Source: Terriglobus aquaticus (GTDB taxonomy: Bacteria > Acidobacteriota > Terriglobia > Terriglobales > Acidobacteriaceae). From it: a stretch of 64,000 nucleotides of DNA. Positions within the stretch are counted from its first letter, which is position 1. Each line of letters begins with the position of its first letter. The position numbers and the translations under genes were made by a program. This document shows, piece by piece, positions 1 to 53,736 of this stretch. Under the pieces are notes generated by a model. The model did not search any database and had not been told where the DNA came from. It was given only the letters and a program-made list of their open reading frames with translations. The stretch is from NCBI RefSeq assembly GCF_025685415.1, contig NZ_JAGSYB010000001.1, positions 1 to 64,000 of the forward strand. The letters run 5' to 3'.

Positions 1-44
1 GACGCACCGTGGGCGCCGGAACCATCACCGAAATCATCAAGTAA
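1..44 (+). CDS. tuf: Elongation factor Tu, C-terminal end (partial)
   Basis: The window opens inside a reading frame (first full codon at 3) whose last 13 residues read RTVGAGTITEIIK before TAA at 42-44. This is the characteristic C-terminus of EF-Tu domain III, where RTVGAG is nearly invariant. EF-Tu is the GTPase that delivers aminoacyl-tRNA to the ribosome. A gene ending here is expected, because tuf normally precedes rpsJ in the str-S10 arrangement, although here rpsJ begins only at 3901. The identification rests on 13 residues plus this context. Confidence 0.9.
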   Translation, partial: RTVGAGTITEIIK

Positions 45-103
45 GCCACTGCATGGAGCAGATGCGCTTCGCGTCTGCCCCATGCAAGCTCACATGCAAC
101 ACC

Positions 104-137
104 GAAGGGCCGCATCGAACGATGCGGCCCTTCTGCT
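104..137 (+). terminator. Intrinsic terminator of tuf
   Basis: A perfect 14-bp inverted repeat (104-117 with 120-133, two unpaired bases between) is followed by a T-containing tract. It lies 60 bp after the tuf stop. A second, imperfect hairpin spans about 51-86. Together they suggest that tuf transcription ends here rather than reading into rpsJ. Confidence 0.8.
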
Positions 138-181
138 TGTGCTTAGAAGTTGTGAGCATCCTGCTTCCAACCAGCAAGTAA

Positions 182-206
182 GCCAGGCTGAGCACCGCGC
201 TCGTCG
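182..206 (+). repeat. 25-bp direct repeat, left copy
   Basis: This 25-bp stretch, starting GCCAGGCTGAG and ending GCGCTCGTCG, matches 3788-3812 at 23 of 25 positions in the same orientation. The pair brackets the three genes inserted between tuf and rpsJ. Confidence 0.75.
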
Positions 207-244
207 AACGCTTTGCTATAGGAGCTACGAGACTTCGCTGTGCC

Positions 245-1018
245 TTAACGAGGGGCTTTAGCCCCTGCCCCTTGCTCGAGGATCAACTGCATCTGGACAG
301 CGTTTGCGGTGGCGTGGCCGAGCGCGGTGTTGTCGAAGATGATCCAGGTCTCCGATGGCTGCTGGGAGTCTTTCGGGGAGAGTACCTCTTCGGCGATTTC
401 GCGAAGCCGGGGTTCTTCGTACTCGGAATAGTAGGTACGCGGTGTGCCGTGCAGGCGCCAGTAGTGGAGGTCCTGCCATCCGCCGGGACGCGCCGCCAAG
501 TCGGAGCCCTTGGGTGGGTCGGCAGCCACGCGGGCGACCTGGAAATCGCGTAGCAGACAATCTGCGGCAGCGGTGAACCAAGTGGCGTTACGGGCTTCCA
601 GGACGATGTTTCCGGTGTGCAGCTCACGGAGCGTGGTCAAGAACTCGTGAGCGATGCCTTCGTCGAAGGAGAGTTTGGGTGGGAGCTGCACGAGGATGGG
701 GCCGAGCTTGTTCCCTAAGCCGCTCACGCCCGCGAAGAAGTCGAGCAGCATCGCACCCGTGTTGATGAGCTTGGCCGTGTGTGTGACGGACTTGGGCGCC
801 TTGACGGCGAAGCGGAAGTCGTCGGGCACGGAGGCGGCCCAGCGCTCCCAGGTAGAGCGACGGTGCGGCCGGTGGAAGCTGGAGTTGATCTCCATGCAAC
901 GGAGGCGGGTTGCATAGCGCTCGAGGTGCGAGAGCTTTCCGCCGTCGGGCGAGGCAGGGAAGAGTGGCAGATGTTGCTTCGGCACGGTCGAACCTGCCGT
1001 GCCGACGAAGCAGCGCAT
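245..1018 (-). CDS. DUF72 (YecE-like) family protein
   Basis: This 257-aa protein has the DUF72 signature: an N-terminal FVGTAGS strand, then EINSSFHR and RFAVKAPKSVTH, a central LVQLPPKL segment and WFTAAADCLL. It ends with LHYWRLHGTPRTYYSEY and WIIFDNTALGHA. The family adopts a TIM-barrel fold and its biochemical role is not settled. The length is normal for the family. The gene starts 42 bp downstream of the end of the disrupted dehydrogenase gene on the same strand, so the two were probably co-transcribed. Both are part of the block that separates tuf from rpsJ. Confidence 0.9.
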   Translation of the reverse strand: MRCFVGTAGSTVPKQHLPLFPASPDGGKLSHLERYATRLRCMEINSSFHRPHRRSTWERWAASVPDDFRFAVKAPKSVTHTAKLINTGAMLLDFFAGVSGLGNKLGPILVQLPPKLSFDEGIAHEFLTTLRELHTGNIVLEARNATWFTAAADCLLRDFQVARVAADPPKGSDLAARPGGWQDLHYWRLHGTPRTYYSEYEEPRLREIAEEVLSPKDSQQPSETWIIFDNTALGHATANAVQMQLILEQGAGAKAPR

Positions 1019-1060
1019 GAGTTACAGGGTACGCGGAAGCGAACGGCGGGAGCTTGCCGG

Positions 1061-2031
1061 CTATTGCATGGTGTAAACGAGGCGCGGCCGTCCCGGGCTG
1101 TTCCACGTTTCCGCGACCTGCGCGAGCGGAACGGCTACGGTTGCCAGATGGAGCTTGCCCTCTGCGGCGAGGTTTAAGGTGTGGCCGATGGCTTCAAGCA
1201 GTTTAGGGAGCGGAACGGATTTTAAGCCGCTGCCCATGATCTGGATAGCGGAGGAGCGCAGGGCGGCGGCGGGAAGCTCGAGCGCTTCGCGGCTGGCCTC
1301 GCCTACCTGGATGAAGCGGACGGGTGGGCGTCTTCAACCGCCCTAGCGATGCTGGTGATGATGGTCCGGGCGCTGGTGCCCCACAGGTAGTCGATGACCA
1401 CGTCGATGCCCTGAGTGAACTCAGCGGCAAGTGCGGCCGCGAACCGGTCAACGCCGTCTGAGTCTCCGGGGCGGAGGTCAAAGGGAAGGATCGCGTCAGC
1501 GCCGAGGGCGCGAAGGGATTCGAGCTCGACGGCGTTGCGACCCGTTGCGATCACCCGCTTTGCGCCAAGCTGCTTTGCGACCTGCACCGCTACATTGCCG
1601 GATGCGCCGGTTGCGCCGTTGACGAGCACGGTCTCACCGGGCTGGAGGTGGGCCCGTTCCACGAGCGCGGCCCAGCAGGACATGCCCGGGTTGGCTATGG
1701 CCGCGGCAAGAACGCTGTTCAACGCGGCGGGGACGGGAATGGTGTGGCGCGGGTCGACCAGGGTTTGCTCTGCCATGGCACCAAAGGGTGCCTCCGGAAG
1801 AACGAAGTACACGCGGCGACCGTCGATGGTGGTGCCTACGCCATCGACGCCGGGAACGAACGGATACACATACTCCGAGCTGTAGTGCGAGCCGGAGGCG
1901 CGGCCCTTCGTGAGATTGCTGAGAGCGGCCGCGTGAACTGTGACCAGGTCCATCTGGTCGCGTAGTGTTGGAGTTGGGAAACTACCAACAACCGGAGTTT
2001 GACCAGGGGATTGGACGACGGCAGCCTTCAT
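1061..2031 (-). pseudogene. Zinc-less MDR alcohol dehydrogenase/quinone reductase, frameshifted
   Basis: From ATG 2029-2031 (MKAAVVQSPG) the frame encodes a medium-chain dehydrogenase with a GroES-like half and the nucleotide-binding motif GATGASGNVAVQVAKQLGA. It then hits a stop at 1303-1305, about 80 residues short. The missing C-terminus continues in another frame from about 1320 (RFIQVGEASREALEL and, later, IQIMGSGLKSVPL) to TAG at 1061-1063, ending RPRLVYTMQ. Adding one base near 1319-1332 restores a roughly 323-residue protein of normal length. The zinc-ligand residues of classical alcohol dehydrogenases are absent, pointing to a quinone-oxidoreductase-like enzyme. This is either a recent single-base deletion or a sequencing error. 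Confidence 0.8.
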
Positions 2032-2242
2032 CGGTCTAGTATGGACCTGCCCGGTTGCATTGCTGTCCGAAGACAGGGTCGGCTTGTCCCGCTCCTTGGC
2101 CGGAGTTCGTGAGACGGTGAAGAGGCGAGTGCTTGGCACACTACGGGAGATCGAAGAGCATGGGATCGCAGTGCAAGTAAAAGGCCGATTTCTGCCCGAA
2201 GCTCCGGAAGCCGCACGGAACGTCGTTCAGGGCAGCGGTGAG

Positions 2243-3775
2243 ATGGCCGATCTGGTCCGCCGCATGGACTGGAGCAGGACACCGCTGGGTCCGATTGCTA
2301 AATGGTCAGAGACGCTGGTCGCGGCCGTTAACTTGATGCTGCTGTCGCCGTTTGCGGGGGCGGTGTATTGGAGCAGCGACCTGATCCTGCTGTACAACGA
2401 CCACTATCGTCCATTCCTGGCTCAGAAGCATCCGTGGGCGCTGGGCTGCACCGGGCCCGAGGTTTGGGCAGAGGCTTGGGAGCAGATTGGGGACCCGATC
2501 CGCTCGGCGTTCCATCCGGGCAAGTCGGTGTCGGCCCGTGCAGAGAAGATTCCGATCCTGGTGGATGGCGTGATGCAGGACCGGTGGTGGACGTACGGTC
2601 TGAACCCGATCTTTGAGAGCGGCAACATCGTGGGTATTGCAAACCCGGTTGTCGACGATACTGCCGCTGTGATCGCTGAACGGGAGTTGAGGCGCAGTCG
2701 CGAAGAGTTCGAGATGGGGATGGAGGCGGCCTCGCTGGGTATGTGGCACTACAACCCCGAGACGAGGCAGGTGATTGCAGACGACCGCATGCACCGCATT
2801 GTTGGGTCGCCGAAGCCAAATGGTGAGGTGGCCTACTGGTTGAACCTGCTGCATCCCGAAGATCAAGAACGAGTTGCGGAGCACTTCCGTGGAGTGCTGG
2901 CGGGCAAGCACGATTACGACATTGAGTACCGCATCCTGCGGGATGGCGAGGTGCGCTGGCTGCGATCGAAAGGAAAGGCATCCCAAGCCGCGGACAGTCC
3001 GCAAGAACTGTTCGCCATTGTGGAGGATGTGACCGAGCGCAAGCTGGCGGAGACGGCGCTGCGGCAGAACGAAAAGCTTGCCGCAGTCGGGCGGCTGGCA
3101 GCTTCGATTGCTCATGAGATCAACAATCCTCTGGAGTCGGTCACGAATCTGCTGTACCTGATCCAGAACAGCGACAGCATGGAAGACGTTCGGACCTATG
3201 TGACAACGGCCGAGCGGGAGTTGCGTCGCGTGTCGCTGATCGCGAACCAGACGTTGCGCTTCCACAAGCAGCAGACCCGACCGGCGATGGCATTTTGTTA
3301 CGACCTGATTGGGGATAGCCTGGCCATGTTCCAGGGGCGCGTCGTCAACAACGGCGTGACGCTGGAAAAGCGCAAGCGGGCGGAGCACCCGGTGGAGTGC
3401 CTGGGTGGAGAGATTCGGCAGGTGCTGAACAACCTGATTGGAAATGCGCTGGATGCCATGCCGAAGGGTGGTCGCCTGTTACTGCGCAGCAGGGAACAGG
3501 TTGACCCCGTAACGGGCGAGCGCGGGCTGGTGATGACCGTGGCGGACACCGGAACTGGAATGTCTCCGCAAGTGAAGGAGCGCATTTTCGACGCGTTCTA
3601 CACGACCAAGGGCATGGGAGGCACCGGCCTGGGCTTGTGGATCAGCAGTGAGATCGTGGCGAGGCACCGGGGCAAGCTGAGGTTCCGGAGTTCTGACCGC
3701 CCAGGAAAGAGCGGAACCGTGTTCACGCTTTTCCTGCCGTTCGGCACATGTTCTGCGACATCCGGACAGCGCTAA
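2243..3775 (+). CDS. PAS-domain sensor histidine kinase
   Basis: Cytoplasmic sensor kinase, about 511 aa. Residues 1 to about 150 form a degenerate PAS/GAF-like region opening with DWSRTPLGP, a motif common at the start of such kinases. A PAS_3 domain follows from about 154 (MWHYN, then LHPEDQERV, ending EDVTERK). The dimerisation helix carries the phospho-acceptor in [11 protein letters not shown] (His291). The ATPase domain shows the N box [11 protein letters not shown] (from Asn396), the G1 box DTGTGMS (from Asp435) and GTGLGLWI. No transmembrane segment is visible and no response regulator is adjacent. The frame is open back to a TTG at 2060. I prefer ATG 2243, just before the first conserved domain, but the start is uncertain. 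Confidence 0.85.
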
Positions 3776-3787
3776 GGGCGGAAACCC

Positions 3788-3812
3788 GCCAGGCTGAGGA
3801 GCGCGCTCGTCG
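3788..3812 (+). repeat. 25-bp direct repeat, right copy
   Basis: This matches 182-206 at 23 of 25 positions, same orientation, and lies between the histidine kinase stop and the rpsJ promoter region. Each copy precedes an AT-richer, promoter-like stretch. Confidence 0.75.
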
Positions 3813-3818
3813 TTTGAG

Positions 3819-3848
3819 TTGTGTTCGAGCCGACTTTTCCGTTATATT
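3819..3848 (+). promoter_or_regulatory. Candidate promoter of the S10 operon
   Basis: A good -10 box, TATATT (3843-3848), lies 18 bp after a weak -35-like TTGTGT (3819-3824), about 50 bp upstream of rpsJ. It is the only clear AT-rich -10 element in this gap. A separate promoter would be needed because tuf ends in a terminator 3.7 kb away. Confidence 0.5.
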
Positions 3849-3900
3849 CGTAGGGTTGGCCGAAATGGCCTGACGCATTTTCGCTCTTTGAGAGAAGAAC

Positions 3901-4221
3901 ATGGCTGGACAGCAAAGGATTCGTATTCGCCTGAAGGCGTATGACTATCGCGTGCTCGACACGTCGACCGGTGAGATTGTGGAGACGGCGAAGCGCACGG
4001 GCGCACAGGTGGCGGGTCCGATTCCGCTCCCGACGATGAAGAACAAGTACTGTGTTCTGCGTTCGCCCCACGTGGACAAGAAGTCGCGCGAGGCGTTCGA
4101 GATCCGCACGCACAAGCGGCTGATCGACATCCTGGAGCCGACGCAGCAGACGGTGGACGCGCTGATGAAGCTCGACCTGCCGGCAGGCGTGGACGTCGAG
4201 ATCAAGACCGTAACCAAGTAA
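3901..4221 (+). CDS. rpsJ: 30S ribosomal protein S10
   Basis: S10 (106 aa, usual length) is a head protein of the small subunit and, as NusE, part of transcription antitermination complexes. Conserved segments are [22 protein letters not shown] and RTHKRLIDI, the last belonging to the tRNA-proximal loop. It is the first gene of the S10-spc-alpha supercluster. A purine-rich GAGAGAAGAAC precedes the ATG. Confidence 0.98.
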
Positions 4222-4364
4222 TCTTCGCAAGCTTCCGCTGCGCGCTGTAGTCCACCAGGTTCGCCCTCAAAGACAGCTCCGCGCAGCACCGCACCACCCA
4301 AGCAGCAAACCAAAATTCAACCGGCAGTGCCCGATGCGAGTCGCGGCATGATGAGGAGTGGCAA

Positions 4365-5108
4365 ATGGCAGTAACAGGTATTCTCGGCCGCAAGGTCGGT
4401 ATGACGCAGGTGTTCGACGATCAGGGTGCGGTGCACCCGATCACGGTCATCAAGGCCGGTCCGTGTGTGATCACACAGCTCAAGACCCAGCTGAAGGACG
4501 GCTACGACGCCGCCCAGATCGGTCTGGTCGAGTTTGTGAAGGCGAGCAAGGTGAACAAGGCCATGACGGGCCACTTCGCCAAGAGCGATGTTCCGCCGGT
4601 CAAGATCATCAAGGAAGTCGCGATCGAAACTTCGACCGGTACGGTCGAGGGTGATGGCAGCGAGGCTGTGAAGGCTGGCGACCGCATCATGGTCGACATC
4701 TTCAACGATGCCAAGTTCGTGGACATTATCGGCACCAGCAAGGGCCGCGGTTTCGCGGGCGTTGTGCGCCGGCACGGCTTCGGCGGCGGTCCCAAGTCGC
4801 ACGGTCACATGTTCCAGATCCAGGGTTCGATCGGTGCATCGTCGTTCCCGTCGCGCGTGTTCCCGGGCCAGCGTATGCCGGGTCACTTCGGCGACGCGCA
4901 GGTCACGGTGCGCAACCTGCGCATCCGCGGCATCGACACTGAGGAGAACCTCCTTATGGTCGAGGGCGCGGTTCCCGGACCTCGTGATGGTGTGGTTCTG
5001 ATCTCGAAGGCGAAGGCTCCGCCGCGTGAGCGTCGTGGATTTGCGGGTTCGGGCACGGTCGATCCGCTGAAGGCTTCGAAGAAGGCTTCGGCAGGCAAGA
5101 AGAAGTAG
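4365..5108 (+). CDS. rplC: 50S ribosomal protein L3
   Basis: L3 (247 aa) starts large-subunit assembly and extends a loop towards the peptidyl-transferase centre. It begins GILGRKVGMTQ and contains GRGFAGVVRRHGF and FPGQRMPGHFG; the glutamine of the latter is the residue methylated by PrmB in other bacteria. Typical L3 is about 210 aa. The excess is a basic Lys/Ala-rich tail ending KKASAGKKK. The ATG follows GAGGAGTGGCAA. Confidence 0.98.
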   Translation: MAVTGILGRKVGMTQVFDDQGAVHPITVIKAGPCVITQLKTQLKDGYDAAQIGLVEFVKASKVNKAMTGHFAKSDVPPVKIIKEVAIETSTGTVEGDGSEAVKAGDRIMVDIFNDAKFVDIIGTSKGRGFAGVVRRHGFGGGPKSHGHMFQIQGSIGASSFPSRVFPGQRMPGHFGDAQVTVRNLRIRGIDTEENLLMVEGAVPGPRDGVVLISKAKAPPRERRGFAGSGTVDPLKASKKASAGKKK

Positions 5109-52730: not shown

Positions 52731-52770
52731 GTTTGGTGAGCCTCGCCACCCTTCCGCTAGTGCGAGCAGA

Positions 52771-52800
52771 AGCAGATCCTTCGCTTCGCTCAGGATGACA
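52771..52800 (+). repeat. Dispersed ~30-bp repeat, copy 1
   Basis: AGCAGATCCTTCGCT followed by TCGCTCAGGATGACA. It matches 53708-53736 over almost the whole length in the same orientation. The two copies flank hisA. No open reading frame is associated with them. Confidence 0.6.
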
Positions 52801-53552: not shown

Positions 53553-53564
53553 GGGTCTGATTTT

Positions 53565-53636
53565 AGCGAGTCAGCGAGTCAGCGAGTCAGCGGGTCAGCG
53601 AGTCAGCGAGTCAGCGAGTCAGCGAGTCAGCGAGTA
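53565..53636 (+). repeat. 8-bp tandem repeat, 9 units
   Basis: Nine consecutive AGCGAGTC-type units: eight AGCGAGTC or single-base variants (AGCGGGTC at 53589) and a last AGCGAGTA at 53629-53636. It is 12 bp upstream of the hisA start on its coding strand. Confidence 0.9.
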
Positions 53637-53707
53637 GGGATCAGGGAATAGGCAGTAGGGCGACAGCGCTGGAGCGAGCAACTGAGGAAGTCGGGCGCGC
53701 GGAAGAA

Positions 53708-53736
53708 AGCAGATCCTTCGCTGCGCTCAGGTGACA
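53708..53736 (+). repeat. Dispersed ~30-bp repeat, copy 2
   Basis: Same element as 52771-52800 with one base changed in the middle and a small deletion near the end (GCTCAGGTGACA). Confidence 0.6.

What the first reader, a model, noticed from the sequence alone, without database searches (positions are those of the whole stretch)
182..3812. Three-gene block between tuf and rpsJ, flanked by 25-bp direct repeats
tuf normally lies next to rpsJ. Here 3.7 kb containing a DUF72 gene, a frameshifted dehydrogenase and a histidine kinase intervene, and near-identical 25-bp direct repeats (23/25) flank the block at 182-206 and 3788-3812. No transposase or integrase is present. This looks like an insertion or a duplication/recombination event at a str-S10 junction, and it puts an unrelated sensor kinase next to the ribosomal genes.
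Basis: partly seen in the sequence, partly recalled or inferred. Interest (0 to 1): 0.55.

Follow-up and report, generated by a model that had tools for sequence, protein, structure and literature searches.

The report
Gene block separating two ribosomal operons
In one soil-bacterium genome three ordinary genes sit between two ribosomal gene groups that are normally joined; the gap was opened earlier in this branch of the family, holds different genes in related species, and the cut-off ribosomal operon appears to have its own start signal.

Summary
In this Terriglobus-group genome, DUF72, a frameshifted Zn-dehydrogenase and a PAS histidine kinase fill the 3.86 kb between a tuf 3' end and rpsJ. 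A 23/25 direct repeat flanks them and occurs nowhere else in the genome (up to 3 mismatches). In 81 of 98 related loci tuf lies directly before rpsJ, so this is a derived state. It is not an isolated new insertion: all 10 genomes of one supported clade, T. roseus included, have tuf or fusA split from rpsJ (1.3-13.4 kb where measurable), with differing genes. Bryocella and two other genomes show a separate split. The block was seen at this junction in no other locus examined. In a close relative, homologues of two of its genes lie on different contigs. No mobile-element gene, terminal inverted repeat or empty site was found, so the repeat is real but unexplained. A promoter-like element (TAnnnT, then RGTTGG) precedes rpsJ in 13 of 13 split and 0 of 81 joined loci; it resembles the rpsL promoter. 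str-S10 insertions are already described in Gammaproteobacteria and Bacilli (Brandis 2021). This is a new member of a known kind, with one testable extra: a str-like promoter on the detached S10 operon.

The parts
1..44 (+). 3' end of tuf (EF-Tu), cut by the contig start
104..133 (+). 14-bp perfect stem-loop after tuf, possible terminator (no T-run, not called by the terminator scan); identical after both tuf copies
   Evidence: inverted repeat I6; identical tail through 141; not listed
182..206 (.). 25-bp direct repeat, copy 1
245..1018 (-). DUF72 protein gene, open reading frame of 257 aa
   Evidence: PF01904 E 5.7e-50
1064..2031 (-). zinc-type alcohol/quinone dehydrogenase gene, frameshifted near 1321-1324 (pseudogene or sequencing error)
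2060..3775 (+). PAS-HisKA-HATPase_c sensor histidine kinase, no response regulator in the block (start codon uncertain)
3788..3812 (.). 25-bp direct repeat, copy 2 (23/25)
3819..3859 (+). rpsJ promoter-like element TTGTGT-18-TATATT-CGTAG-GGTTGG
   Evidence: prediction, no transcript data; the stricter scan does not list it
3854..3900 (+). predicted S10-operon leader with a 5' stem-loop
   Evidence: z -1.0, weak on its own
3901..4221 (+). rpsJ (S10), first gene of the S10 operon
   Evidence: PF00338

Best explanation
This is a lineage-specific filling of an inherited gap between the str operon (rpsL-rpsG-fusA-tuf) and the S10 operon (rpsJ onwards). Shown: one Terriglobus clade has the tuf-rpsJ junction open throughout, and its members carry different genes there. 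Inferred: once rpsJ had its own promoter the two operons no longer needed to be joined, so genes could come, go and spread the operons further apart. In this genome the present content is DUF72, a decayed dehydrogenase and an orphan sensor kinase. The kinase probably has no special tie to the ribosome. The 25-bp direct repeat is a real footprint of how this stretch was joined (a long target duplication or illegitimate recombination), but which of these is not resolved.
For: Of 98 rows, 81 are joined (tuf stop codon begins 3-187 bp before rpsJ, median 96), 12 split and 5 undecidable at contig ends; the window is a further split locus. On a 72-locus tree of 13 ribosomal proteins the 10 split Terriglobus-group genomes form one clade (support 1.0) next to joined ones. 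Distances to tuf: 1.3 kb (G018), 3.8-3.9 kb (G002, G007, G013), 7.0 kb (G004), 13.4 kb in T. roseus (G011). Content differs: a DUF882 gene is shared by G002/G007/G013/G004/G011 and one gene by G003/G010, while G000, G014 and G018 share no gene (E 1e-6, over 60 aa) with the 13 other segments each was compared with, two of which are cut by contig ends. In the close relative G014, the nearest DUF72 and kinase relatives lie on different contigs beside genes whose G000 counterparts are at 3.135 and 0.985 Mb. GC of the block is 62.7% against 62.1% for the window. A promoter-like element (TAnnnT-N3-6-GGTTGG, one variant admitted for G003) precedes rpsJ in 12 of 12 split rows and the window, against 0 of 81 joined rows.
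Against: tuf is a collapsed repeat at the contig start, so the 37-kb C2 could be inverted and the upstream neighbour exchanged. Some relatives are fragmented MAGs. G018 has an identical 3.8-kb stretch after two tuf copies, perhaps an assembly error. In G003 and G010 no tuf lies between fusA and rpsJ. The promoter is a pattern match only: a -35-like TTG at 16-18 nt joins the full motif in 9 of 13 split loci, and the stricter generic scan found no sigma-70 site in 1-4400. Joined loci have only about 100 bp between the genes, so part of the 300 bp searched there is tuf coding sequence.
Confidence: 0.85

Rival explanations
1. A single recent insertion of a 3.6-kb mobile unit that made a 25-bp target duplication.
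For: Flanking 23/25 direct repeat with no third site in the genome, above shuffles and real-sequence controls; block not seen at this site in relatives.
Against: No transposase or integrase; no inverted pair of 14 nt or more joins the two ends; no further full copy, only kinase-like partial matches; genes of differing orientation and one already decayed; the junction is split throughout the clade; in eight other split loci no flanking direct repeat exceeded the best of 60 shuffles.
Confidence: 0.1
2. The three genes arrived one by one or by rearrangement, and the 25-bp repeat is a local duplication by illegitimate recombination, or a chance survivor.
For: Two of the genes have relatives on separate contigs in G014; another near-identical 25-mer pair lies in the window; content differs among the other split genomes.
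Against: The two copies lie just outside the outermost genes, on both sides, which one event would explain best.
Confidence: 0.5
3. The gap comes from recombination between the duplicated tuf genes: the DNA downstream of each tuf copy is a breakpoint hot spot.
For: The tufB-side flank also varies: about 3.2 kb between tuf and tRNA-Trp in this genome, 0.3-3.4 kb in six others (G010, G006, G001, G003, G011, G004), and tuf with its tRNAs detached from tRNA-Trp-secE in G002. The two tuf copies are identical for 97 bp past the stop codon.
Against: No chimeric tuf or exchanged flank was demonstrated; joined genomes also have two tuf copies (G001, G006); the tufB-side gap is short in the split G010 and G003 too.
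Confidence: 0.25
4. Assembly artefact at the tuf repeat.
For: The contig begins in tuf.
Against: The block to rpsJ is continuous sequence inside the contig, the tuf tail runs into it without a break, and T. roseus, a complete record, is split too.
Confidence: 0.03

Closest known systems
str-S10 gene insertions P38 (bfd-bfr, Gammaproteobacteria) and F72 (ilv-leu, Sporolactobacillaceae), Brandis 2021, PMC8046335 (passages read)
   Same: A few genes invade the space between str and S10, after which the operons are often further separated in descendants.
   Different: Here in Acidobacteriaceae, with other genes, content that differs between related species, and a promoter-like element that tracks the split.
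rpsL (str) promoter-like element of the same family
   Same: TTGnnn-17-TAnnnT followed by GGTT, found within 500 bp of rpsL in 10 of 26 valid rows.
   Different: It continues GGTTCC in 8, GGTTCT in 1 and GGTTGC in this genome, against GGTTGG before rpsJ; 16 of 26 rows show no such element within 500 bp.
Composite transposon or IS-borne block
   Same: Direct repeats outside the block.
   Different: No transposase, no terminal inverted repeats, no other full copy; the repeat is 25 bp and imperfect.

Membership tests
Gene insertion at the str-S10 interoperon junction (Brandis 2021 class) | Operons joined in the ancestor and near relatives | tested here: met
   81 of 98 rows joined, neighbouring Terriglobus-group genomes joined
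Gene insertion at the str-S10 interoperon junction (Brandis 2021 class) | Unrelated genes between tuf and rpsJ | tested here: met
   tufA identity inferred
Gene insertion at the str-S10 interoperon junction (Brandis 2021 class) | Further separation in descendants | tested here: met
   1.3 to 13.4 kb within the clade; direction of change inferred
Transposon or integron insertion | Transposase or integrase gene | tested here: not met
   13 ORFs of the block scanned
Transposon or integron insertion | Target-site duplication | tested here: inconclusive
   25-bp 23/25 repeat present, but no empty site
Transposon or integron insertion | Terminal inverted repeats | tested here: not met
   no inverted pair of 14 nt or more joins the two ends
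str-like ribosomal promoter before rpsJ | TTGnnn, 16-18 nt, TAnnnT, GGTT | tested here: met
   window 3819-3859; 9 of 13 split loci with -35-like part
str-like ribosomal promoter before rpsJ | Transcription start there | not testable with these tools
   no RNA data

The most novel reading that the evidence does not exclude
Whenever the S10 operon is detached from str in Acidobacteriaceae, it converges on the same str-like promoter (TAnnnT-N5-GGTTGG, mostly with a TTG at -35, and a hairpin leader). A promoter switch is then what makes this otherwise frozen junction tolerant of foreign genes, at least twice independently, and the duplicated tuf genes make it a recurrent breakpoint.
Probability: 0.35. 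Interest if true: 0.5.

Novelty: new member of a known kind. Interest (0 to 1): 0.3.

Why it matters
str-S10 is among the best-conserved operon junctions in bacteria. A single genus-level group with both joined and split states, several fillings and a promoter that tracks the split lets one ask in which order operon break-up happens: promoter first, or insertion first.

Tried and rejected
Coupling of the kinase to ribosome genes: no response regulator in the block and a promoter-like element between kinase and rpsJ; nothing supports it. Ancestral arrangement: rejected, the joined state dominates. Generic dispersed repeat: rejected, two sites only. Foreign block: no GC shift, and relatives of all three genes occur elsewhere in the genus. 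A known RNA family in 1-4400: none at E 0.1. Flanking repeats in eight other split loci: none above the best shuffle. Leader hairpins: z-scores from -0.6 to -2.4 for seven leaders, not used as proof. Promoter by a standard consensus scan: none found. Loose promoter pattern by itself: 2 hits in 130 kb of this genome against 0.9 in shuffles, maximum 3, so weak. Kinase origin: the G014 relative sits beside genes matching 0.985 Mb of this genome, where another kinase (47%) already stands, so direct relocation is not proven. IQ-TREE failed (thread setting, after the alignment had been made; time-out), so the tree is FastTree only. Literature: four paper searches; only PMC8046335 was opened, by passages (12 of 23 places shown); the rest were seen as listings with the start of their abstracts.

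Full report
What is there. The window is the first 64 kb of contig C1 (4,126,416 bp) of a two-contig genome; C2 has 36,958 bp. Position 1-44 is the end of tuf and rpsJ starts at 3901. Between them lie DUF72 (-), a dehydrogenase (-) broken near 1321-1324, and a PAS-HisKA-HATPase_c kinase (+). The 25-bp repeats are as described, have no third site in the genome, are absent from 18 of 18 other genus genomes, and are beyond chance.

Assembly caveat. Both ends of C1 are tuf 3' ends, identical through window position 141. C2 starts with about 21 bp of a tuf 5' end, with tRNA-Gly, -Thr, -Tyr and -Thr upstream of it from about 1.3 kb on, and ends in rpsL, rpsG (by eye), fusA and a complete tuf; its end overlaps both C1 ends. 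The order fusA-tuf-block-rpsJ on one side and tRNAs-tuf-3 genes-tRNA-Trp-secE-nusG on the other matches relatives such as T. roseus, but it is inferred.

Relatives. In one search, 33 of 41 genomes had rpsJ at 1e-20; I took junction stretches from 27 of the 32 other than the window's own (not G009, G029, G030, G032, G036). G009's coordinates show tuf about 107 bp before a partial rpsJ, thus joined; G015 and G016 gave no rpsJ. One search gave 80 of 142 loci by L3. The other 98 are 81 joined, 12 split and 5 undecidable at contig ends. On a FastTree of 13 ribosomal proteins (72 of 76 rows kept; alignment, tree) the 10 split Terriglobus-group genomes form one clade with support 1.0, next to joined G005 and G006. 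The window groups with G014 and G018 (0.994), the order within that trio being unresolved (0.114). Bryocella, L154 and L139 are split in another part of the tree. L139 shares one inserted gene with Bryocella and another with L154, so I count at least two splits; a joined genome (L145) is placed next to L139 with weak support (0.485), so the history there is unclear.

Turnover. Gap and content differ: G018 1.3 kb with a methyltransferase-like gene; G014 a phosphoesterase and an unknown gene (cut by the contig end); G002/G007/G013 a DUF882 gene and a GH92 hydrolase; G004 7.0 kb with a pseudouridine synthase, DUF882, epimerase and sulfatase among others; T. roseus 13.4 kb; G003/G010 share a gene that I would call SMP-30-like by eye, and have no tuf beside fusA. 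The window's genes are in none of these gaps. In the 19 genus genomes, own included, DUF72 relatives occur in 12 (1e-20), dehydrogenase relatives in 12 (1e-25) and kinase relatives in 5 (1e-100). In G014, DUF72 and kinase relatives lie on separate contigs.

Promoter. Aligning the region before rpsJ in the ten split Terriglobus-group genomes shows one conserved block, TANNNT-N-RGTTGG. In 300 bp before rpsJ the motif is present in 12 of 12 split rows, Bryocella, L139 and L154 included, and in 0 of 81 joined rows; the window has it. A first search limited to 130 bp found it in 9 of 12, missing those three. Together with a TTG at 16-18 nt it is complete in 8 of 12 rows and the window. L157, whose contig ends 610 bp upstream without tuf, also has it, so I predict it is split. 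The pattern was written after seeing the Terriglobus sequences, and one alternative was added to admit G003; the Bryocella-side hits are the more independent test. The looser pattern (GGTT only) has 37 hits in 59 loci: 8 before rpsJ, 13 of a GGTTCC or GGTTCT kind, 16 others. Within 500 bp of rpsL such an element was found in 10 of 26 valid rows (a 27th, L139, was cut by its contig end and is void). Shuffles of 130 kb of this genome give 0.9 loose hits on average (maximum 3) against 2 observed, before rpsJ and rpsL, so the loose pattern alone is weak and the conservation carries the argument.

Reading. The break-up of str-S10 by gene insertion followed by separation is described for Gammaproteobacteria and Bacilli, where insertion is said to relax selection for operon synteny (PMC8046335, passages). 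This locus is a further case in another phylum. The repeats are real, but their mechanism is open.

Noticed in passing
L071 7212-10394 (end of contig C1): The other tuf copy is also followed by about 3.2 kb of genes (two Ferritin_2-domain proteins, and one unnamed ORF) before tRNA-Trp-secE-nusG; the gap is 0.5-0.6 kb in joined G006 and G001, 0.3-0.9 kb in split G010 and G003.
   Followed up: partly
L283 1-3803 and L284 8028-11832 (G018 C43): An identical 3.8-kb stretch follows two different tuf copies on one contig: recent duplication or assembly error.
   Followed up: partly
window 1-141 and end of C1: The two tuf copies are identical for 97 bp past the stop codon, hairpin included, which suggests gene conversion.
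   Followed up: partly
L076 and L082 (G003, G010); L282 and L259 (G002): In G003 and G010 tuf is missing between fusA and rpsJ, but one tuf lies before tRNA-Trp-secE; in G002 tuf and its tRNAs are detached from tRNA-Trp-secE.
   Followed up: partly
window 53557-53644: Tandem array of an 8-bp unit AGCGAGTC.
   Followed up: no
window 52770-52794 and 53707-53731: Another near-identical 25-bp direct repeat pair (24/25).
   Followed up: no
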